Both the position numbers and the translations under genes were made by a program. Shown here piece after piece: positions 7,226-17,706 of a stretch of 64,000 nt of DNA. Under the pieces are notes generated by a model. The model did not search any database, was not told where the DNA came from, and worked only from the letters and a program-made list of their open reading frames with translations. Numbering within the stretch: the stretch's first letter is position 1; each line of letters starts with the position of its first letter. The DNA comes from Paraflavitalea soli (GTDB lineage Bacteria > Bacteroidota > Bacteroidia > Chitinophagales > Chitinophagaceae), in assembly GCF_003555545.1 (NCBI RefSeq), contig NZ_CP032157.1:2732546-2796545 (forward strand), written 5' to 3'.

Positions 7226-10200
7226 CTACAACTTAACGATCTTGATCGATGCAGGTGCAGAAGTTCCTTCCAGGTGCAGCATATAGTTGCCGCCGGGCAG
7301 ATTGCCCAGGCTCTTGCTAAACCTGGCATTACCTGCCGGTACATTCCATTGACGAAGCAGGCGGCCATTCATATCCAGCAACTTCATGGTATGATAATGA
7401 TGCCTGCCCTGCTCGATGGTGATCATATCCCTTACAGGGTTGGGATATACCCTGAATGCCAGCGGTGCTTCCGAATCACCGGAGATGGCGCTCTTCATCG
7501 TAAGGGAAGATGCCGTGGTATCAGGCGCCGGCGCTACCGCACAATTATTGATCGCAAACCAGTTGAATTTAAAAGTACCCTGGTACACGATGACATTGGC
7601 ATAACTTATTGCGGGCAATGTCATGGTATCGGTAATAGTTGCCCATTGACCATTGGTATTGGGCAGGCTGATAATGCCGTAGGTGATGCCGGAATTGGCG
7701 AGCTTCACTTTGGCAGGTGCGGTCGTCAATACCCGGAAGCTCACATTGTACTTGCCCCTTACCGGTATAGCCAATACACTGTAACCAAACCAATGGTTAT
7801 AACCCAGCCCCGTAAAGTTTTGTCCACCACTGGTATCCGTAGTAGGTTCCAGGGTAGGCTGGGGAGAACGGGAGGTACTGATCTCCGCTTCATAGCGCTT
7901 ATTAAAAGTGCAGCCATACCCGGTCGTGAAAATAGCCGACCCGCTGATGCTGTCTTTGACTGCTGTAATGGTAAAGGTGCCTGGTTCCATACCGGCCGTC
8001 AGGGCGCCGGCCTGGGTTACACTGTTGCCCGTGCCGCTTACCGACCAGGCAGGACCGGTAAATGCAAAGGCGCTGCCATACTGATCAAATCCCTTGGTGG
8101 TGTATTGCTGGGAAGCGCCAAACGGTACGGTGAGGCTATCCGGCACTACCTTGATGCTGGCCAACTGGGGTGCTGCCAACACTTTTACCTTTCCATAACC
8201 ACTCATGCTATTGTAGGAAGCCTTGACCAGGTAACCACCCGGTGTATAGCTGGCGGTGAACACCCCCTTATAATCCATCACGCCACCAGCAGCAGGCACC
8301 GACCAGGTAAAGGGAATATCAAAACGGCTGCTGTCGCTGCCATAGGCCGCTGCCTTGAACGGTTTCTTTCCGCCCACAAATACACTGGTACTGTCGGGCG
8401 ATACCACAATACGGGAAAGAGAAACGTCTGTAGCCCGCACCACCTTTAGCCAGTTGAAGTTCCAGCCGGAAGTAGCCGCTTGTATCAACAGCGTTTTCTT
8501 ACCACCCGGCATTTGGAAAGGCGCGGAAGTAACGGTGACCCAGTTCTGCCAGCCGCCGCTGGCCGGCAGTGTCATCGTAGTCAGCAAGGTATCACCCATC
8601 ATCACTTTCACGGTACTGGCCGTATTAACAGCTACACGCAGCTGGAGGCGGTAACTGCCCGTCCAGGGCGCTTCGATATCATATTCCATGAAAGAGGTAG
8701 CTCCAATAAAACTGACGTTCAGCACGCCGCTGGTATCCAGCACAGGTTCTGTGCGGGTGGTATTGGAATAATCAAATGCTTCCGCTTCTATCCTTGCAGG
8801 TACCGGTTTGAAATTGGCCACCCTGGTGGTTACATTTGCGGTGGCGGATAAAGTGTCACCATTATAACTAACCGTAGCCGTTACAATACCTGGTGAATGG
8901 ATGCAGGCCAATCCTCCTGCCGTGATGGTATTGCCGCTGCCCGTAATGCTCCATACGGGTGTCAGGCTCATCGGGAAATCATTCTGGTCAAAGATCTTTG
9001 CCGTGTATTGGTATTTCCTGCCGGCTACAATAGCACGGTTGGCCGGACTTACCACGATACTGTCAGGCACCGGCGTGCCCAATCCCTTCTGGTACACCCG
9101 TACATAATCTACCAGCATGCTGTCGGGCCAGTTGGCTTCTGTGATCGCTCCACCCATACCGCCGCCAATGGCCACATTGAGGATGATATGAAATTTCTGA
9201 TCGAAGGGCCAGTCTTTCCAGTCTGTCTTAGGGTTCACATACGTATACACTTTCACCCCATCATAGGTAAAGCGCAGGGAATCCTCACTCCATTCAAGGG
9301 CATATACATGGAATACCGTATCCACATCGGGAATGAGTTTCGACGCGGAAAGATGGCCTCCATTCGTCCAGTTATTGTTTTGCGTATGAACCGTAGAAAG
9401 CACCGTACCGAAATTATTACCTACATGCTCCATGATATCGATCTCTCCGCTCTTGGGCCATGCGCCATACGATTCGGTAGTAGGCATGAGCCAGATGGCT
9501 GGCCAGGAGCCACGTGCCCGGGGCAACCTCGCCCTTACTTCCACCTTACCATAGCGGAAATCGACTTTGTTGCGGGTAATGAGGCGGGCTGAGGACCAGG
9601 GCTCAGTCGTATTGTAATTGGGATAATCCTTTTTACCGGTGATCACCAGGCTGCCGTTGCGTACGCGGGCATTGTCATAAGAGGTATCTGTGTACACCTG
9701 TTGCTCTCCGTTGATCCAGCCTTTGGGACGTGGGTCTACCGTCCATTTGGTAAGATCGGGCAGGCCCGTGCCATTGAAGTGGTCTTCGAAAATAAGCGTA
9801 TAGTTGGGATTGCCTTCAAAAACGACATTGCCCAACGCGAGATACTGCGCAGCGGCAGGACCGGCCAGCTCCGATCCTGCGATGGTAAGCCGGAGAGTAA
9901 AGCGTGAGTAATTGGCCAATGAATTGCCTGCCAGCACTACGTTCACAGTCGTGTCGTTCACTCTTTGCAGACTGTCGATGGTAACGCCGGATGGCAATTG
10001 CGCTGTCCAGTTTGATTTGTTCAATACTGAATCGAACGTATTCTTATGGATGGTGGCCTGGATAACAGCACCCTGCTCCTGCCCCATGACTATCCGCGTA
10101 TCAGCCAGGGTAATATTTACCCGGTCAGGGCTCTGCACCAGGTCGAAATGCAGGATGCCATTGGCCTTCCGGCCATCGATGAATTGCACGACAATCGTAT

Positions 10201-10720
10201 TGAAGTCAGTCCTATTCTTAACGCTTTTAAAATCAAAGACGGCTTCTTCCCAGGTATTGATATTCTTGATGCGATAAGTAAGAAATACCGCTTTGCTGTA
10301 ATTGGTGCCGGGTTGCAGTTTGAACATGACATCTTCTATCACGTTGCTGCGCACCAGCATTTTGAAAACACTGTTGGTGCTCAGGTCAAAGGAGTCGGGC
10401 AGGCTGCAACTGGCCGACATCCATTCAAAGCTGGTGGTGTCTTTGGTAAACCTGGCTACATGCGAACTGGTATTGAGCCCTGTAACAGCAGGATTGGGAA
10501 TATTAAACTCTACTTTACCTGTGGTCGTATTACCGGCATAAAACGTCCACCTGCCGGAGCAGGGGCCATGGCCCTCCATATCATCCAGCAGCAGGAACTG
10601 GGCCTGCCCTTTACTGCACAACAACAGGCAAAACAACAGGAATAAGGTGAACGTTCTGGTGAGCAGGGGCAGCAGTGTAGCGCCTCCCCATATGGGCAAG
10701 TTGATCGTTATCTTTTTCAT
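7226..10720 (-). CDS. Secreted multidomain GH16 beta-glucanase with T9SS sorting domain
   Basis: This 1164-residue enzyme is predicted to cleave beta-1,3 or beta-1,3-1,4 glucans at or outside the cell surface. In order: signal peptide (to about 40), a galactose-binding-like domain (45-200), a linker Ig-like domain (200-300), the GH16 catalytic domain (305-545), a bacterial Ig-like domain (550-632), a CBM6-like domain (640-762), two more Ig-like domains (766-935), a second CBM6-like domain (940-1058), and a Por-type C-terminal sorting domain from VYPNP (1091) to the end. The GH16 signature GEIDIMEH is at 425-432, giving Glu426 as nucleophile and Glu431 as acid/base. It is the last gene of the ECF-FecR-SusC-SusD run, 25 bases after susD, so it is probably the depolymerase of that locus. 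Exact glucan specificity cannot be read from sequence. Confidence 0.93.
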   Translation of the reverse strand: MKKITINLPIWGGATLLPLLTRTFTLFLLFCLLLCSKGQAQFLLLDDMEGHGPCSGRWTFYAGNTTTGKVEFNIPNPAVTGLNTSSHVARFTKDTTSFEWMSASCSLPDSFDLSTNSVFKMLVRSNVIEDVMFKLQPGTNYSKAVFLTYRIKNINTWEEAVFDFKSVKNRTDFNTIVVQFIDGRKANGILHFDLVQSPDRVNITLADTRIVMGQEQGAVIQATIHKNTFDSVLNKSNWTAQLPSGVTIDSLQRVNDTTVNVVLAGNSLANYSRFTLRLTIAGSELAGPAAAQYLALGNVVFEGNPNYTLIFEDHFNGTGLPDLTKWTVDPRPKGWINGEQQVYTDTSYDNARVRNGSLVITGKKDYPNYNTTEPWSSARLITRNKVDFRYGKVEVRARLPRARGSWPAIWLMPTTESYGAWPKSGEIDIMEHVGNNFGTVLSTVHTQNNNWTNGGHLSASKLIPDVDTVFHVYALEWSEDSLRFTYDGVKVYTYVNPKTDWKDWPFDQKFHIILNVAIGGGMGGAITEANWPDSMLVDYVRVYQKGLGTPVPDSIVVSPANRAIVAGRKYQYTAKIFDQNDFPMSLTPVWSITGSGNTITAGGLACIHSPGIVTATVSYNGDTLSATANVTTRVANFKPVPARIEAEAFDYSNTTRTEPVLDTSGVLNVSFIGATSFMEYDIEAPWTGSYRLQLRVAVNTASTVKVMMGDTLLTTMTLPASGGWQNWVTVTSAPFQMPGGKKTLLIQAATSGWNFNWLKVVRATDVSLSRIVVSPDSTSVFVGGKKPFKAAAYGSDSSRFDIPFTWSVPAAGGVMDYKGVFTASYTPGGYLVKASYNSMSGYGKVKVLAAPQLASIKVVPDSLTVPFGASQQYTTKGFDQYGSAFAFTGPAWSVSGTGNSVTQAGALTAGMEPGTFTITAVKDSISGSAIFTTGYGCTFNKRYEAEISTSRSPQPTLEPTTDTSGGQNFTGLGYNHWFGYSVLAIPVRGKYNVSFRVLTTAPAKVKLANSGITYGIISLPNTNGQWATITDTMTLPAISYANVIVYQGTFKFNWFAINNCAVAPAPDTTASSLTMKSAISGDSEAPLAFRVYPNPVRDMITIEQGRHHYHTMKLLDMNGRLLRQWNVPAGNARFSKSLGNLPGGNYMLHLEGTSAPASIKIVKL

Positions 10721-10745: not shown

Positions 10746-12188
10746 TTATAAATGAGGGTTCATCAGGGCATCGGCGCCAGGTATCGGCATCAGGTAATTT
10801 GCTTTGGTGATGGGTTTGGCTGGCGTCAGATCATCGGGATGTTTATTGGCGTTGGCCGCTTCTACCCTTTCCAGGCGAACCAGGTCAAACCAACGGTTCC
10901 ATTCACCGGCAAACTCCCAGGCTCTTTCATCGATCACCGCGTTGATAAAATCATTGCCTGCTAACCCAGCCGGCAGGTCGTTGAGCCCGGCACGCTTACG
11001 CACGGCATTGATTGCAGCATACGCCTCTGTATTGACGCTGCCACTGCGTGCCTGCGCTTCGGCATAGATGAGCAGCACATGGGCATAGCGGATCATAATC
11101 ACGGGATTGTTCGACATGTAAGTAGCCTTGGTACCTGTCTGGATGATAAACTTCTTGTAGTAAGGATGTTTGGTGGTTACATCCTGCCAGGGAATGGTAG
11201 CGCCATTTATTACAAAAGAGGTAGAGAAGGTGGCGTCTTTCCGGCTGCCTTCGGGGAAGTTGTTGAAGAAATTGATCTCCGGGAAAAAGTCGCTCCAGCC
11301 GCCTTCATTTTCAGGCATGGTAGAGAGGCCGTAGAATGAATTATAAGTGATCCATTGTCCCCTTGTGTACAAGGCAAATACATCCTCGTTGGTGCCGCCG
11401 GCAAATATCTTCAGGAAACCACCCTGGTAAAGGTCAAAACCAAAAGCAGTTTTGTTGTCGATCACTTCTTTTGCTTTGGTTGCTGCCAGTGCATATTTGG
11501 AAGCATCGTTGATGGGCCATCCGCCTTGCGTGAGGTACACATCGGCCAGCAGGGATTTTACAGCGCCTTTGTTGGGCCGGCCGGCACTGCGCCGGGCAGT
11601 GGGTACCCAGGCTTCAGCCTTCAACAGATCGGCTTCTACCAGCTTGTACACTTCTGCAACCGGGCTTTTTTTGATCGTGAGGTATTCTGCCTGGTATTGT
11701 TCGGAAGGAATAATGGGCACTTCACCCCAGAAACGGGTAAGCCAGTAATAACACAAGCCACGTAAAAAATAAGCCTCCCCTACAATGGCCTGAACACTTG
11801 CCTCCGTACCATCCTGCACCTTCGTATAGTTGTTGATGATATTGGTAGTGGACTGGATGGTTTTATAACAACCACGCCAAATAGGCAACATCCGGCTGTT
11901 AAGATCAGCCACGCTGAAGCGGTCAAACTCACGGAACTCTTCTTTATTGGAACCAGGATGCGTTGTCAGGTCATCGCCGCCCATCGTCATGGCGATCTGC
12001 GATACCGTAGTGAAGCCGCTTTCCCAGGGCACCTGCAAGCTGCCGTAAGCGCCGGTAAGGGCCGATTCAAGACTGGCCAGGTTGCTGATACCTACAGAGC
12101 CCAACACCAGCCCTTTGGGTTCTTCCGTCAACTGCTTCGAACAAGCAGCAGCGAGGAACAATATCGAAATGAAATAAAGCTTTTGCAT
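10746..12188 (-). CDS. SusD/RagB-family glycan-binding lipoprotein
   Basis: This 480-residue protein has a lipoprotein signal peptide (LAAAC, Cys16), so it is anchored at the outer membrane and probably surface exposed. It shows the SusD/RagB pattern: an N-terminal region starting with LESALTGAYGSL, internal TPR-like helices with EAYFLRGLCYYWLTRFWG, and a C-terminal domain with YAEAQAR and ERAWEFAGEWNRWFDLVRL. It lies 18 bases downstream of susC and 25 upstream of GH16 and should form the lid of the SusCD importer for oligosaccharides released by GH16. Length is normal for the family. Confidence 0.93.
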   Translation of the reverse strand: MQKLYFISILFLAAACSKQLTEEPKGLVLGSVGISNLASLESALTGAYGSLQVPWESGFTTVSQIAMTMGGDDLTTHPGSNKEEFREFDRFSVADLNSRMLPIWRGCYKTIQSTTNIINNYTKVQDGTEASVQAIVGEAYFLRGLCYYWLTRFWGEVPIIPSEQYQAEYLTIKKSPVAEVYKLVEADLLKAEAWVPTARRSAGRPNKGAVKSLLADVYLTQGGWPINDASKYALAATKAKEVIDNKTAFGFDLYQGGFLKIFAGGTNEDVFALYTRGQWITYNSFYGLSTMPENEGGWSDFFPEINFFNNFPEGSRKDATFSTSFVINGATIPWQDVTTKHPYYKKFIIQTGTKATYMSNNPVIMIRYAHVLLIYAEAQARSGSVNTEAYAAINAVRKRAGLNDLPAGLAGNDFINAVIDERAWEFAGEWNRWFDLVRLERVEAANANKHPDDLTPAKPITKANYLMPIPGADALMNPHL

Positions 12189-12206: not shown

Positions 12207-15200
12207 TTAAAAGCTAAGCGTACACCCACCTGTAAAAGTCCGGGCATTGGGATAAGAACCATAATCAATACCCTGGCGTATATCACCGGCTGAAGAATTG
12301 GCTTCCGGGTCAATACCTGTATAGTTAGTAAGGGTCCATAGATTGGTGGCGCTCACAAATAGTCGAAGCCCAGCTATATTACCCAGGGCCTTGCGGGGTA
12401 CCTCGTACGAGAGGCTGAGGTTTTTCAACCGCAGGAAATCGGCCTTTTCCAGGAAACGGGTAGACTGCGTAAAGTTCCTGTTCGTAGAACTGAAGGCCGG
12501 AATATCTGAAGTCTCATTGACACCAGGAATATAACGGTACTTAATATCCACATAGGTAGCTTCGCGGGCATCACCGCCAAGATACATGGCAGCAGCTTTG
12601 TTATAATTGAGCTTATCAAAGCCAAGCATGGCGTGAAAGAATACATTGAGGGAAATGCCTTTATAACTAACCGTATTGTTCCAGCCAAAAGTAGTGGTGG
12701 GAACACCAGTACCTATTACACCATAATCACTGGCATCAATTACATTGTCGCTATTTTTATCCAGGTAGCGGGAGTCGCCGGGCCTGGCGCCAAAGGGTCC
12801 TGCTTTACCTTCCTCGCCGGGTTTCCAGGTACCCAGGTAAGTAAGCCCCCAGATAGCGCCCAGCGGCTGACCGGGCATCACCACAAATTCCGATTGGGGC
12901 GACATGCCACCGCCGATCTTGCGGTTGTTGGGATCAAAGATGATGGCCCTTTGCCCACTGGAGATTACGCGGTTCCTGACAAATGAAGCATTGAACCAAC
13001 TGGTCCAGGTAACCGGCCCTTTATCAAATACCGCCGCCTCGATAGCAAACTCAAAACCTTTATTCTGTACTTCACCTGTATTGCGGGTAATGACATTACC
13101 GCCCAGGTACATAGGAAGCGTTTCATCCAGCAACAGGTCACGTGTATCCTTGATGAAGTAATCGGCTGTAAGAGAAATACGTCCATTCAAAATACCGGCC
13201 TCCAAACCAATGTTCTTCTGCTCTGTCGTCTCCCATTTCAGATCAGGGTTGCCGATATTGCCCAATATGATACCCGTCTGCGAAGCACTGTTGGTAAACG
13301 AAGCCACCCGGTTGGAATAAGAAGAAAGCGTGCTGTAGGCCTCCACACCCTGGTTGCCGGTGAGGCCCCAGCTGCCACGGACCTTGAGGGTGCTGAATAC
13401 ATTGAGGTCGCTGATGAAGGATTCGTCCGACAATATCCAACCAACGGAAGCAGAAGGGAAATAACTGTATTTATTATCGTCTGCAAACTTCGAAGATCCA
13501 TCCCGCCTGATGGTAGCAGACAAGAGATACTTATCCTTATATGCATAATTAACCCGGCCCATCAGGGAGAACAAGGCCCATTTGGAATAACCGGAGGAAG
13601 GATTGCCCGGTGTACCCAATCCTATATTATTCCACATGAAGGATTCATAATTGAGATTGGAACTACCCACCGCCATAAAGTTGTAAGTAGACTGCTGGTA
13701 CTCCATAACGGCCGTAGCATCGAGGCTATGTCCGCCAGTGAAGGTCTTGCGGTAGCTAAGCGTATTGGTATTCTGCAACCTCAGCTCTTTGTTGGAACGC
13801 AGGCTGGTAGTAGAGGTATTGGAATTGACCACCTTGCTGGCAAAACCCTTGTTTTCATAACCCATGTAATTGGCGCCAAATTGGAGGTTGAGGTGCAGGC
13901 CCGGAATGATCCGGTACTTGAATCCACCGATCACATTGGCCAGCATACGCTCTGTTACCGTTAACTGATCGGTAGTGAGGGCTACAGGGTTGAAAAAAAC
14001 AGAGCTGACCGGATCGGCGATGGTATAACCACCCATGGATGTGCGCACCGGTACAGTGGGCGACCAGGTGATGGCTTGCGCCAATGGACTGTGCGGACCA
14101 TCAGCAGGAATATCAATATTCTGCGAGGTACTGTAAGAACCCAGTATGTTAAGGAAAGCCGATACTTTTTCGCTTAGCTTGGCATTGATATTGGAGCGGA
14201 GGGTATAGCGTTTGAGAAAGGAATTCCTGATCACGCCATCCTGGTTGAGGTAGTTGCCGGAAATAAAGTAATTGCCTTTATCCGTGCCGCCTGCCAGGTT
14301 GAGCAGGTATTCCTGCGCACCTGCATTACGGAATATCTCATCCTGCCAGTTGGTACCGCCTTTCACTTTGAACTCATCGATCTGCGCGGTAGTAAATGGC
14401 AAGGCAGTACCTGATGCCTGGGCATGTGCATTGACCGTTTCGGCAAACTCTGCAGCATTCAGCAGGTCCAGTTTCTTCAGCACTTCTGCTGAGGAGAAGC
14501 GGGCCGTGAAATTGACTTTCAGACTTCCTTTCACTCCTTTCCTGGTAGTGATGATGATCACGCCATTGGAACCACGGCTTCCATAGATAGCGGTAGCCGA
14601 TGCATCTTTCAACACCTGCAGGCTTTCAATGTCTTCCGGGTTAATGGAAGCAAAGTCAGCTCCCACAAATCCATCTACCACATACAGCGGGCCATTGTCG
14701 CCATTAATGGAGTTGGAACCGCGTATGCGTATACGCACACTGCCACCGGGAGCACCGGTTGCATTGGTCACCTGCACACCAGCCGCACGGCCTTGCAGGA
14801 TCTGGTCGAGCCGGCTCACCGGCTGTTCCCGGAAAGAGGCGGCAGAAACGGTGGTAATAGCGTTGGTCAGTGTACCTTTCTTTTGCTCGCCATACCCGAT
14901 CACTACCATTTCTTTCATGCTGGAAGGAGCAGCCTCCAGGGTCACGGAGATGGCAGTTCTTCCTTTCACCGCTATCTCCTGTTCATCAAAACCCAGGGAG
15001 GAGATGATCAATACCGCATCGCCATTGGCCACAGAGATCTCATACTCACCCTGCTCATTCGTAACTACACCTTTGCCCGTGCCTTTTACCTGGATAGTAG
15101 CCCCGGCTACCGGATCGCCTTTATCGTCCGTCACCCTGCCCTTAATGGTTATATCTTCCGCTATATCCACCGTAGTCACTGCGGTCACTACCGGCGCCTT

Positions 15201-15587
15201 GCGCTTTACAATAATGGTTTTACCACTCATGGCATAAGTAAGCGGCTGGTAGCGGAAACATTGCTCCAATACCTTATCGAGCGGTGCATTTTGCACCTGG
15301 AGCGTCACTGTTTTAGCAATGGATAATTGTTCATCGGTATACAGGAAATTATAGCCGGTCTGTTTCCTGATCTCTTTAAAAGCTTTGTCCAGTGGCGTAT
15401 TGCGCAGGGAGAGCGTTACAGTTTGTGCAATGCCTTCGGCCTGCACCTGCAGCATGGCAATCGTCATCAAAAGCACAGTTAGTTTCATGATCAGTACCGA
15501 TTTTGCAAGTAATCGTGGGTAGTTTTTACCGCTGGGAATCCCGCAAACGCGGGATGGCGCGCTTTGGGAAAAAAGCGTCAAAAGCAT
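12207..15587 (-). CDS. SusC/RagA TonB-dependent receptor with STN signalling domain
   Basis: This 1126-residue outer-membrane importer starts with a signal anchor/peptide, then an STN secretin/TonB signalling domain (about 55-130, VTLSLRNTPLDKAFKEI), a carboxypeptidase-regulatory-like repeat (about 148-215, IKGRVTDDKGDPVAGAT), the plug (from EMVVIGYGEQKKGTL, about 227) and a long beta-barrel ending in Phe. The STN domain fits signalling to the adjacent FecR/ECF pair. Start choice is uncertain: the ATG at 15587 gives a 33-residue extension before MKLTVLL, which begins at 15488 and alone makes a good signal peptide. The extension (LLAKSVLIMKLT) looks like that of related SusC proteins, so I kept it. 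A plus-strand promoter -7 box overlaps the 15587 start codon. Confidence 0.93.
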   Translation of the reverse strand: MLLTLFSQSAPSRVCGIPSGKNYPRLLAKSVLIMKLTVLLMTIAMLQVQAEGIAQTVTLSLRNTPLDKAFKEIRKQTGYNFLYTDEQLSIAKTVTLQVQNAPLDKVLEQCFRYQPLTYAMSGKTIIVKRKAPVVTAVTTVDIAEDITIKGRVTDDKGDPVAGATIQVKGTGKGVVTNEQGEYEISVANGDAVLIISSLGFDEQEIAVKGRTAISVTLEAAPSSMKEMVVIGYGEQKKGTLTNAITTVSAASFREQPVSRLDQILQGRAAGVQVTNATGAPGGSVRIRIRGSNSINGDNGPLYVVDGFVGADFASINPEDIESLQVLKDASATAIYGSRGSNGVIIITTRKGVKGSLKVNFTARFSSAEVLKKLDLLNAAEFAETVNAHAQASGTALPFTTAQIDEFKVKGGTNWQDEIFRNAGAQEYLLNLAGGTDKGNYFISGNYLNQDGVIRNSFLKRYTLRSNINAKLSEKVSAFLNILGSYSTSQNIDIPADGPHSPLAQAITWSPTVPVRTSMGGYTIADPVSSVFFNPVALTTDQLTVTERMLANVIGGFKYRIIPGLHLNLQFGANYMGYENKGFASKVVNSNTSTTSLRSNKELRLQNTNTLSYRKTFTGGHSLDATAVMEYQQSTYNFMAVGSSNLNYESFMWNNIGLGTPGNPSSGYSKWALFSLMGRVNYAYKDKYLLSATIRRDGSSKFADDNKYSYFPSASVGWILSDESFISDLNVFSTLKVRGSWGLTGNQGVEAYSTLSSYSNRVASFTNSASQTGIILGNIGNPDLKWETTEQKNIGLEAGILNGRISLTADYFIKDTRDLLLDETLPMYLGGNVITRNTGEVQNKGFEFAIEAAVFDKGPVTWTSWFNASFVRNRVISSGQRAIIFDPNNRKIGGGMSPQSEFVVMPGQPLGAIWGLTYLGTWKPGEEGKAGPFGARPGDSRYLDKNSDNVIDASDYGVIGTGVPTTTFGWNNTVSYKGISLNVFFHAMLGFDKLNYNKAAAMYLGGDAREATYVDIKYRYIPGVNETSDIPAFSSTNRNFTQSTRFLEKADFLRLKNLSLSYEVPRKALGNIAGLRLFVSATNLWTLTNYTGIDPEANSSAGDIRQGIDYGSYPNARTFTGGCTLSF

Positions 15588-15594
15588 ACATTTG
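15563..15594 (+). promoter_or_regulatory. Plus-strand promoter facing away from susC
   Basis: TTTG at 15563-15566 and TACATTTG at 15587-15594 (exact TAnnTTTG) are separated by 20 bases, the consensus Bacteroidota -33/-7 arrangement. There is no plus-strand protein gene downstream; a terminator follows about 80 bases later. It therefore appears to drive a short RNA. Confidence 0.6.
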
Positions 15595-15599
15595 TTGTA

Positions 15600-15677
15600 A
15601 TTAGGGTTAATAAATGGATTGTCAAGTTTATGGACCCGATCTTAGCCGGGGGTGGTACCAACACTCCCGGTTTTTTT
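15600..15677 (+). ncRNA. Candidate antisense small RNA opposite the susC leader
   Basis: A consensus promoter (15563-15594) and a consensus intrinsic terminator (15646-15677) on the plus strand bracket about 75-80 bases with no ORF, in the fecR-susC spacer. The transcript would be fully complementary to the leader of the minus-strand susC mRNA if that mRNA starts beyond about 15680. Its 5' end would lie only about 13 bases from the susC start codon. Antisense RNAs at this place in ECF/anti-sigma-controlled SusC loci are known from Bacteroides (DonS type), where they repress the locus. The 5' end is estimated from the -7 box and could move by a few bases. Existence is inferred; no expression data are available here. 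Confidence 0.55.
15646..15677 (+). terminator. Intrinsic terminator on plus strand in fecR-susC spacer
   Basis: A 9-bp stem (15646-15654 with 15662-15670, one G:T pair) with a 7-base loop is followed directly by seven T (15671-15677). The T run is only on the plus strand, so it cannot terminate the minus-strand fecR transcript. No annotated plus-strand gene uses it. Confidence 0.75.
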
Positions 15678-15741
15678 GGGCCCTGCGATCATACGTTGTG
15701 CGTTAAGGGCTCATATGGCAGTTTTTAGGTGATAGGTATGT

Positions 15742-17007
15742 TTATGGTGTTACAATGATCTTCCGTCCGCTGATCTCAAAATGGATCTCACCGGTTTGTT
15801 CCATCATGTCCAGCACCTGCGATACAGGTACATTGCTGGATATTCCTCCCCTGAAATGCGCATTGGGAATATTGCCCCGGTATTCCACTTCCACATCATA
15901 CCAGCGCGCAATCATGCGCATGACGGTATAGATATTATTCCCATCGAACTGAATTTGCCCGTTCTTCCAGGCCATCACGGCTTCTACATCAACCGTCTGA
16001 ACCATTATTGGGGAAGATGCATTGTATTGGGAGGATATAGGTACAGCGGCTTGTTGTCCAGGGCTTAGAATTACAGATTGTTGCAGATCAGTGGTCGCAG
16101 CATTATCGATTGCTGATTGCCGACTGCCGACCTTCACCTTCCCTTCCAGCAAGGTGGTCTTGATCGTTGTTTCATCACTATACCCATTGATATTGAAATG
16201 CGTGCCCAGCACTTCTACCTGCATACCGTTGAGATTGACACGGAAAGGCATGGCGGCATTTTTCTCCACTTCAAAATAAGCTTCACCGGTAAGCGTCACT
16301 TCCCTGGTCTTGCCATTGAACGCAGTGGGATAATGCAGGCTGCTGGCAGCATTGAGCCACACGCGGCTGCCATCCGGCAGGGTTACATAGAACTTGCCGC
16401 CATTGGGAGTAGTAATAGTATTATACAAAGTGGCCGTAGGGGTCACGTTGTCCGTTGCTTCATAAGCCAGTTGCCCGTTGGCCAGCTTGACTACCCGGGT
16501 ACTACCTTGCTGGCCCAGTGTACCATTCTGTGCATTCTCCAGGATGATCTTTGAACCATCTGCCAGGATGAGTACGGCTTTGTTGCCGCCCGGCTGTATA
16601 TCGTTTTGGGGGATAGGATTTTGTTGTACGATCGGGGCCTGCGGATTCCCACGGAATAACCACCAGGCGCCAGCCGCCAAAGTAAGTACCAATATAGCAG
16701 CGGCGGCATATTGCCACCAGGGGCGGCGCGATGGCAGGTTAATGACCGTAGTATCGGGGGATGATGTGGCAGGCACTGGGGTCTGCAGCTTTGTCCATAC
16801 TTCTTCAAAAGCAACCCGGGTATTGCTTTCTGCAGTGGCCGGCCCGGCTATCTCCTCTTCATACAGGGAGGCCAGCATTTGATCCAATAATGCGCGGTTG
16901 CGTTCGTCCTGAACAAGCACCCTCAATTGATTGATCTCCGCGGGCGTTAGTTTTTGATCATTGAGGAACTTTTCGAATAATTCCTGGAAGAGGTCCTGTT
17001 TTGACAT
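15742..17007 (-). CDS. FecR-family anti-sigma factor
   Basis: This 421-residue protein is built as a Bacteroidota FecR: a cytoplasmic N-terminal anti-sigma region (1-90), one TM helix (about 97-116, YAAAAILVLTLAAGAWWLF), a periplasmic FecR domain (about 195-290, with TPNGGKFYVTLPDGSRVWLN and GEAYFEV) and a C-terminal DUF4974-like STN-facing domain (about 345-421, ending in a KIIVTP strand). It should hold the upstream ECF sigma factor inactive until the STN domain of the adjacent SusC reports substrate. It lies 51 bases after the sigma gene and 154 bases before susC; that gap contains the antisense RNA candidate. Confidence 0.92.
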   Translation of the reverse strand: MSKQDLFQELFEKFLNDQKLTPAEINQLRVLVQDERNRALLDQMLASLYEEEIAGPATAESNTRVAFEEVWTKLQTPVPATSSPDTTVINLPSRRPWWQYAAAAILVLTLAAGAWWLFRGNPQAPIVQQNPIPQNDIQPGGNKAVLILADGSKIILENAQNGTLGQQGSTRVVKLANGQLAYEATDNVTPTATLYNTITTPNGGKFYVTLPDGSRVWLNAASSLHYPTAFNGKTREVTLTGEAYFEVEKNAAMPFRVNLNGMQVEVLGTHFNINGYSDETTIKTTLLEGKVKVGSRQSAIDNAATTDLQQSVILSPGQQAAVPISSQYNASSPIMVQTVDVEAVMAWKNGQIQFDGNNIYTVMRMIARWYDVEVEYRGNIPNAHFRGGISSNVPVSQVLDMMEQTGEIHFEISGRKIIVTP

Positions 17008-17058: not shown

Positions 17059-17706
17059 TTACAAGGACGCATAAGAAAGAAGAGGGAGAGCATGCGCTCG
17101 AAAATAAATTTTGACAAGCTCACCTGCCACCAGCATCACCAACAACTGGTCATTATTATATTGGGCCAGGTATTTCCTGATAGCATACAGCGCCCGCACC
17201 ATATAAGATTTTGACGTAATACGGGTAATATTCATGCGCAGGGCTATCTCGGCATGGGTAAGGCCTTCAATCCTGCTTAATCTGAATACCTGCTGCAGCT
17301 GCGGGGGCAGGTTATCGATGGCCCGGTGCATTAGCTTCTCCAGCTCTTTATATTCCGTTTTTTCCTGGGGAGAGATGGCATCGTCGCTAAAGTAGGCAGT
17401 CAGGTAATCCTCATTGCTGGCAGTAAATACATGCTTGCGGAGGTGGTCTATGACCAGGTGGCGGGAAACGGTGAAAATAAAAGCGCTGAAATTGGTGACG
17501 GCCGGCAGCTTATCGCGGTTGTTCCAAATTTTAATGAAGGTTTCCTGGGCGAGGTCTTTGGCCAGTTCGGGGCTTTTGGTGAGGCGCAATCCTATTCCAT
17601 ATACCTTGTCCCAGTAGCTTTCAAATATTTGCCGGTAAGCCTCCTGGTCACCAGCGGCAATGCGGAGCAGTAGTTCCTGTTCGTTGTATGGTTGTACGAA
17701 TGGCAA
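17059..17706 (-). CDS. ECF RNA polymerase sigma factor (Bacteroidota sigma-70 type)
   Basis: This 215-residue protein has sigma region 2 (about 26-95; ESYWDKVYGIGLRLTKSPELAKDLAQETFIKIW) and region 4 (about 143-195; LPPQLQQVFRLSRIEGLTHAEIA followed by the recognition helix). A hydrophobic C-terminal tail, common in this subfamily, ends the protein. With the adjacent FecR and STN-SusC it forms a trans-envelope signalling set controlling the GH16 locus. It is the first gene of the minus-strand run. No clear housekeeping promoter was found upstream; autoregulation through its own promoter type is possible but unseen. Confidence 0.92.
   Translation of the reverse strand: MPFVQPYNEQELLLRIAAGDQEAYRQIFESYWDKVYGIGLRLTKSPELAKDLAQETFIKIWNNRDKLPAVTNFSAFIFTVSRHLVIDHLRKHVFTASNEDYLTAYFSDDAISPQEKTEYKELEKLMHRAIDNLPPQLQQVFRLSRIEGLTHAEIALRMNITRITSKSYMVRALYAIRKYLAQYNNDQLLVMLVAGELVKIYFRAHALPLLSYASL

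What the first reader, a model, noticed from the sequence alone, without database searches (positions are those of the whole stretch)
15563..15677. Antisense small RNA in the fecR-susC spacer of the GH16 locus
Seen: on the strand opposite susC, TTTG-N20-TACATTTG (a full Bacteroidota promoter, 15563-15594) is followed about 52 bases later by a 9-bp hairpin and seven T (15646-15677), with no ORF between. The predicted RNA of about 77 nt would pair perfectly with the susC leader next to its start codon. Known: Bacteroides PULs with ECF/anti-sigma control can carry such antisense RNAs (DonS type) that repress susC. Inference: the same logic operates here in a Chitinophagaceae-like genome, where I know of no described case.
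Basis: partly seen in the sequence, partly recalled or inferred. Interest (0 to 1): 0.82.

Follow-up and report, generated by a model that had tools for sequence, protein, structure and literature searches.

The report
Antisense RNA opposite a susC leader
Opposite the start of a sugar-uptake gene, this bacterium appears to encode a short folded antisense RNA that probably controls that gene, and the same arrangement recurs beside many similar genes across the Bacteroidota.

Summary
A Bacteroidota promoter (15563-15594) and a terminator hairpin with seven T (15644-15677) bracket a predicted 79-nt RNA (15599-15677, +), antisense to the susC leader in an ECF sigma/fecR/susC/susD/GH16 gene row. 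In this window alone the promoter is no better than chance; comparison makes the case. 22 of 24 susC orthologs keep the -7 box and the hairpin (3 of these 22 with a decayed T run). The terminator stem covaries and folds better as antisense than as sense RNA in 22 of 23. A covariance model from the orthologs hit 49 of 147 Chitinophagaceae genomes; all 30 fetched hits lie antisense between fecR and susC. These RNAs share two hairpins; the arms of the long-range one co-evolve (0 of 10,000 permutations). Antisense terminators also mark fecR-susC spacers in a phylum sample (19 of 41; sense strand 2 of 41) and in four genomes of Bacteroidales or near kin (21 of 28; sense 1 of 28). The -7 box overlaps the probable susC start codon. 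This is the DonS kind of PUL antisense RNA known from Bacteroides, here extended to Chitinophagaceae and other lineages. Transcription and repression of susC are inferred, not shown.

The parts
15563..15566 (+). -33 element TTTG of the antisense promoter
   Evidence: at a spacing of 17-22, TTTG in 12 of 18 and TTG in 18 of 18 orthologs with box and terminator, but it overlaps susC codons; elsewhere not clearly enriched (TTTG in 2 of 10, 3 of 19 and 4 of 15)
15587..15594 (+). -7 element TACATTTG, overlapping the probable susC start codon (ATG at 15587 on the - strand)
   Evidence: kept in 22 of 24 orthologs, where only the two free positions of TAnnTTTG vary; broken in L018 and L019, which also lack the terminator
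15599..15677 (+). predicted antisense RNA, about 79 nt (start placed from the -12 to -5 geometry of the box)
   Evidence: geometry from a passage of PMC9723704
15604..15637 (+). hairpin H1: 5' arm GGGTT.. with GACCC.. just before the terminator
   Evidence: arms co-evolve across 29 RNAs, 0 of 10,000 permutations
15644..15677 (+). hairpin H2, intrinsic terminator: 11 pairs, loop GTACCAA, T run to 15677
   Evidence: change on both sides in 5 of 11 pairs, 0 of 500 shuffles; antisense fold more stable in 22 of 23
12207..15587 (-). susC (TonB-dependent receptor with STN, CarbopepD_reg_2 and Plug), the presumed target; start at 15587, or at 15488 if the N-terminal extension is not used
15742..17007 (-). 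fecR-type anti-sigma factor gene
17059..17706 (-). ECF sigma factor gene
10746..12188 (-). susD
7226..10720 (-). GH16 glycoside hydrolase with CBM6/CBM35 and a Por_Secre_tail domain

Best explanation
It is the gene of a cis-encoded, structured antisense RNA of the DonS kind. Shown by comparison: an RNA element on the + strand, opposite the susC leader, with a promoter -7 box laid over the probable susC start codon, a conserved two-hairpin fold and an intrinsic terminator; found at fecR-susC junctions and, in this genome, rare upstream of susC genes without fecR. Inferred: the housekeeping sigma factor transcribes it when the locus is not induced; the RNA pairs with the susC leader from about 12 to 90 nt upstream of the start codon; pairing begins between the 7-nt terminator loop and the complementary loop of the leader; the duplex blocks translation or exposes the mRNA to cleavage and so lowers SusC/SusD until the ECF sigma factor, freed by FecR signalling, raises the sense transcript.
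For: Orthologs: -7 box and hairpin in 22 of 24, joint loss in L018/L019. Terminator covariation. Strand: antisense fold more stable in 22 of 23 terminators and 29 of 30 whole RNAs; in H1 54 G-U of 328 pairs on the antisense strand, 4 of 224 on the sense strand. Co-evolving H1 arms. Covariance model: 49 of 147 Chitinophagaceae genomes, up to 19 matches in one; 30 of 30 fetched hits antisense between fecR and susC, 28 of them not in the model. Own genome: antisense terminator in 14 of 30 fecR-susC spacers, sense 3 of 30, and 2 of 21 susC without fecR nearby (Fisher p 0.005). Phylum sample 19 of 41 against 2 of 41; Bacteroidales and near kin 21 of 28 against 1 of 28. Start-codon box of at least 5/6 in 15 of 19 phylum spacers with terminator, 5 of 20 without (p 0.0009), and in 1 of 21 susC without fecR. 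Published DonS-type RNAs: 78-128 nt, cis-antisense, negative effect on susC (PMC7366714, passage).
Against: No expression data. 16 of 30 own fecR-susC spacers show no antisense terminator by my filter, and 98 of 147 family genomes have no model hit at E 0.001 under fast filters, so it is not universal. The -33 box is not clearly enriched outside the orthologs. Three orthologs (L012, L013, L025) have a decayed T run and -33 box, two (L018, L019) have lost the RNA. The model includes the promoter stretch, so part of its aim at susC starts may come from that. Outside Chitinophagaceae H1 is seen in only part of the copies (9 of 19, 10 of 14, 12 of 18, no control). Exceptions to the strand test: L003, L241. 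B. thetaiotaomicron shows positively as well as negatively correlated pairs (PMC10994844).
Confidence: 0.72

Rival explanations
1. The antisense RNA is real but acts otherwise: as transcriptional interference (a promoter firing across the susC leader against oncoming polymerase), or as an activator that opens an inhibitory leader structure.
For: The promoter lies at the probable susC start; some B. thetaiotaomicron asRNA-PUL pairs correlate positively (PMC10994844); the mechanism of DonS is stated to be unknown (PMC11697453).
Against: Pure interference would not select RNA structure, yet H1 and H2 co-evolve.
Confidence: 0.18
2. The RNA acts mainly in trans on other susC leaders; the copies share the GTTTGGGTTAA-like 5' end and similar loops.
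For: Shared 5' motif and fold among copies.
Against: Each of the 30 fetched hits sits opposite its own susC; trans pairing was not computed.
Confidence: 0.06
3. The conserved element works in the sense mRNA (leader riboregulator, attenuator or translation signal), and the antisense promoter is a by-product.
For: The element lies in the susC leader; the -33 box is coding and the -7 box overlaps the start codon; the complementary sense hairpins also fold, less well, and sense arms also beat permuted ones.
Against: G-U pairs occur on the antisense strand (54 of 328) and hardly on the sense strand (4 of 224); the T run follows the stem only on the antisense strand.
Confidence: 0.03
4. Chance promoter and terminator, or transcriptional noise.
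For: The promoter alone is at chance level in the window; some antisense start sites in B. thetaiotaomicron are suspected to be spurious (PMC7366714).
Against: Conservation, covariation and 30 of 30 placement of model hits.
Confidence: 0.01

Closest known systems
DonS family of PUL-associated cis-antisense RNAs (Bacteroides fragilis, B. thetaiotaomicron)
   Same: Antisense to susC at PULs, similar length. Described in PMC7366714, PMC10994844 and PMC11697453 (passages read). The same anatomy as in the window was found here in four genomes of Bacteroidales or near kin.
   Different: Host is a Chitinophagaceae genome. A conserved two-hairpin fold and a -7 box on the start codon are described here; whether DonS itself has them was not compared, since no DonS sequence was at hand and the founding paper (PMC4999932) is not held and was not read.
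Plasmid copy-number antisense RNAs such as ColE1 RNA I (recalled, no call)
   Same: Fully complementary cis-antisense RNA with stem-loops whose 7-nt loops could start pairing.
   Different: Target is an outer-membrane transporter mRNA, not a replication primer.
Type I toxin-antitoxin antisense RNAs such as Sok (recalled, no call)
   Same: Short RNA near a start region; U-turn-like loop in the target.
   Different: The target is a large SusC transporter, not a small toxin.

Membership tests
DonS family (PUL cis-antisense RNAs) | Encoded opposite the 5' region of a susC homolog | tested here: met
   30 of 30 fetched related hits in the same position
DonS family (PUL cis-antisense RNAs) | Length 78-128 nt (PMC7366714) | tested here: met
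   predicted 79 nt here; related predictions mostly 70-130 nt, a few shorter; prediction only
DonS family (PUL cis-antisense RNAs) | PUL under ECF sigma/anti-sigma control (recalled for DonS) | tested here: met
   ECF sigma and FecR genes directly upstream; 14 of 30 fecR-linked spacers against 2 of 21 susC without fecR
DonS family (PUL cis-antisense RNAs) | Own promoter and intrinsic terminator | tested here: met
   the -33 part is weak outside orthologs
DonS family (PUL cis-antisense RNAs) | Detected transcript | not testable with these tools
   needs strand-specific RNA-seq or Northern blot
DonS family (PUL cis-antisense RNAs) | Represses its susC | not testable with these tools
   needs a mutant
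DonS family (PUL cis-antisense RNAs) | Common descent with the B. fragilis DonS sequence | not tested
   no DonS sequence at hand; the same anatomy seen in other Bacteroidales and near kin
Any Rfam family | Match at or near a gathering score | tested here: not met
   only a tRNA in the window; two matches far below their cut-offs at 15450-15800; none in ten related loci

The most novel reading that the evidence does not exclude
FecR/ECF-linked susC genes throughout the Bacteroidota carry an ancient built-in antisense gene. Its promoter -7 box is written into the susC start codon and its product is a two-hairpin RNA. Its 7-nt terminator loops follow an anticodon-loop-like pattern (S-U-N-N-N-A-A), complementary in form to the leader loop, so that sense and antisense loops can kiss. 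It would be a phylum-wide RNA brake on glycan uptake, with a dozen or more copies in one genome.
Probability: 0.5. Interest if true: 0.78.

Novelty: new member of a known kind. Interest (0 to 1): 0.62.

Why it matters
The papers I saw call the mechanism of DonS unknown (PMC11697453) and ask for functional study of this class (PMC10994844). A conserved fold, a fixed position relative to the start codon, natural loss variants and a searchable covariance model make direct tests possible, and carry the question from gut Bacteroides to environmental Bacteroidota. On print: Chitinophaga with small RNA, antisense and TonB gave 0 papers in the held library. In the rows listed (20 of 50 papers; 25 of 95; 10 of 10; 21 of 21) I saw, by title, no described case in Chitinophagaceae; one row is a Niabella species description (PMC9558575), not opened. 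Subscription papers are mostly not held.

Tried and rejected
Sense-strand leader element: rejected as main explanation by the G-U asymmetry and the T-run position. Noise: rejected by conservation and covariation. Ordinary translation-start context as the source of the -7 signal: T at -1 is common in susC genes without fecR too (15 of 21) and carries little weight; AAA at -6 to -4 is not (0 of 21, against 7 of 15 own-genome spacers with terminator). A full -33/-7 promoter at every copy: not supported. A sense-strand (ECF) promoter motif between fecR and the RNA: a simple 6-mer count without control gave mostly A-rich words and CCCTGA; nothing usable. Known RNA family: none. Model R2 from the MAFFT alignment of all copies did not contain H1, because the 5' ends were misaligned; H1 was tested by permutation instead, where the sense strand also gave 0 of 10,000, as complementary arms must, so the permutation shows pairing and not the strand.

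Counts set aside: one search indexed the start codon one base off, and its box scores are void (redone). Searches misplaced the end of fecR in some own-genome and ortholog records (over-long spacers seen: L017, L030, L086, L103, L111), so own and ortholog terminator counts are taken. One search had a stricter terminator filter (12 of 30), replaced. Own genome: 44 FecR_C matches; 40 places were fetched, 4 matches inside susC-sized frames were not fetched for themselves. L125 repeats L094. Loci without both genes and spacers under 60 nt were dropped, leaving 30. The 21 susC without fecR are those among the 30 fetched of 56 listed matches with no fecR in the flank held; 57 of the 78 loci had fecR upstream by the script's rule; 69 loci given, chosen from the listed matches; 64 pairs found, 41 with spacers of 70 nt or more (a few long ones such as L180 and L184 are doubtful); 30 loci given, 29 pairs, 28 long enough. 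One search used 29 of the 30 RNAs (L242, near-identical to L240, left out). Note 2 says 27 hits outside the model; the recount is 28.

Full report
Observation. The + strand carries TTTG-N20-TACATTTG at 15563-15594 and a hairpin plus seven T at 15644-15677. It lies between fecR (15742-17007, -) and susC, in the gene row ECF sigma (17059-17706), fecR, susC, susD, GH16. Alone, the promoter is at chance level; the fold of 15600-15677 is not (z -3.68). The genome belongs to the same family as Chitinophaga tropicalis: G010 is marked 'same family', and the contig of its susC hit has the length and position of the C. tropicalis record.

Start codon. susC could start at 15488 (MKLT) or at 15587 (MLLTLFSQ...). 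In the 23 orthologs the frame is open through the extension, whose length differs among them, so the upstream start is likely used. The antisense -7 box then overlaps the start codon and the predicted RNA starts about 12 nt upstream of it, using the rule that the TAnnTTTG box sits at -12 to -5 (PMC9723704, passage).

Orthologs. One search returned 78 loci, of which 23 (named Chitinophaga, Filimonas or Flavihumibacter) are 67-73% identical; one search added L003, 82%, same genus. Alignments. The -7 box is TACATTTG, TACTTTTG or TATATTTG in 22 of 24; L018 and L019 have TACGGTCG and TACAATTG and also lack the terminator. L012, L013 and L025 keep box and hairpin but have a broken T run. In 19 distinct terminators, 5 of 11 stem pairs change on both sides (0 of 500 shuffles reach this; sliding the partners destroys it). 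L003 has a largely rewritten but still paired stem.

Which strand. G-U pairs fold only on the strand that is the RNA. The terminator is more stable as antisense RNA in 22 of 23 sequences (exception L003), the whole RNA in 29 of 30 (exception L241). In the long-range helix H1 the antisense strand has 54 G-U among 328 pairs, the sense strand 4 among 224.

Search without gene context. A covariance model of promoter plus RNA of window and orthologs found matches in 49 of 147 Chitinophagaceae genomes (37 of 100 genera), up to 19 per genome; 98 genomes had none at E 0.001 under fast filters. Of the 30 fetched hits (one genome each, best first), 30 have susC on the opposite strand at their 5' side and fecR on the opposite strand at their 3' side; two of these (L225, L227) are sequences of the model itself. 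Because the model includes the promoter stretch over the susC start, part of this aim may come from there. The window RNA and the 29 others fold into H1 (GTTTGGGTTAA-like 5' end with its complement just before the terminator) and H2 (terminator) (30 of 30). H1 arms pair better within a copy than between copies (mean -11.7 against -9.3 kcal/mol, 0 of 10,000 permutations, n 29).

How general. Antisense terminators in fecR-susC spacers: own genome 14 of 30, sense 3 of 30, and 2 of 21 for susC without fecR nearby; loci with fecR upstream 42 of 57 against 2 of 57, the positives including Pedobacter, Dyadobacter, Runella, Larkinella, Spirosoma, Belliella, Algoriphagus, Arenibacter and Massilibacteroides; phylum sample 19 of 41 against 2 of 41; four genomes of Bacteroidales or near kin (two Massilibacteroides, one Bacteroidales MAG, one Prolixibacteraceae MAG) 21 of 28 against 1 of 28. 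These records are related by descent, so the sign-test values overstate certainty. The -7 box in register with the start codon reaches 5 of 6 in 15 of 19 phylum spacers with terminator against 5 of 20 without (p 0.0009), in 18 of 21 against 3 of 7 in the Bacteroidales set (p 0.04), and in 1 of 21 susC without fecR. Predicted lengths are mostly 70-130 nt. H1 with at least 5 long-range pairs is seen in 18 of 18 orthologs, 6 of 9 own-genome copies, 10 of 14 phylum copies, 12 of 18 of the Bacteroidales set and 9 of 19 distant loci (no shuffled control), so the two-hairpin fold is secure in Chitinophagaceae and only partly seen beyond.

Loops. Of 59 distinct terminator loops, 23 are 7 nt long; in these, position 2 is U in 17, position 6 A in 20 and position 7 A in 17, a pattern like a tRNA anticodon loop (recalled). 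Its complement has the same form. YUNR motifs are in excess in the sense loops (0.41 against 0.20 in shuffles, 0 of 2000) and less so in the antisense loops (0.22 against 0.13, 69 of 2000). I read this as a hint of loop-loop pairing; it is an inference.

Mechanism. A short stable RNA would cover the susC leader up to the translation start. The simplest reading is repression in cis when the ECF system is off, as reported for DonS (PMC7366714, PMC11697453, passages read). Neither transcription nor repression is shown here, and published data for B. thetaiotaomicron are mixed (PMC10994844).

Relation to the known. In position, size, linkage and signals it behaves like the DonS family, and the same anatomy appears in Bacteroidales. 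The founding paper (PMC4999932) was not held, so I cannot say whether its authors already described the start-codon overlap or the fold. Hence 'new member of a known kind', with a wide extension of range.

Noticed in passing
window 15703-15714 (-): A three-codon frame ATG-AGC-CCT-TAA (M-S-P-stop) lies between the fecR stop and the 3' end of the antisense RNA. M-S/G-P-stop is found in 20 of 24 ortholog spacers, using all four Pro codons and two stop codons, as if translated; it could also be part of the ECF promoter.
   Followed up: partly
L018 and L019, 320 bases upstream of susC: Orthologs that lack the terminator and have a broken -7 box, while fecR and susC remain adjacent: natural knock-outs of the antisense RNA.
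   Followed up: partly
window 15489-15587 (-): SusC frames downstream of FecR often carry an extension of some 25-40 residues (MQK..., MKK...) before the MKLT-like signal sequence, kept in frame although variable in sequence.
   Followed up: no
window 8807-8838 (+): A second exact TTTG-N20-TACATTTG lies inside the GH16 gene, antisense to it; probably chance.
   Followed up: no
own genome, loci L085-L155: One genome holds 44 FecR_C matches and at least 56 SusC/RagA matches, a large set of uptake systems.
   Followed up: no
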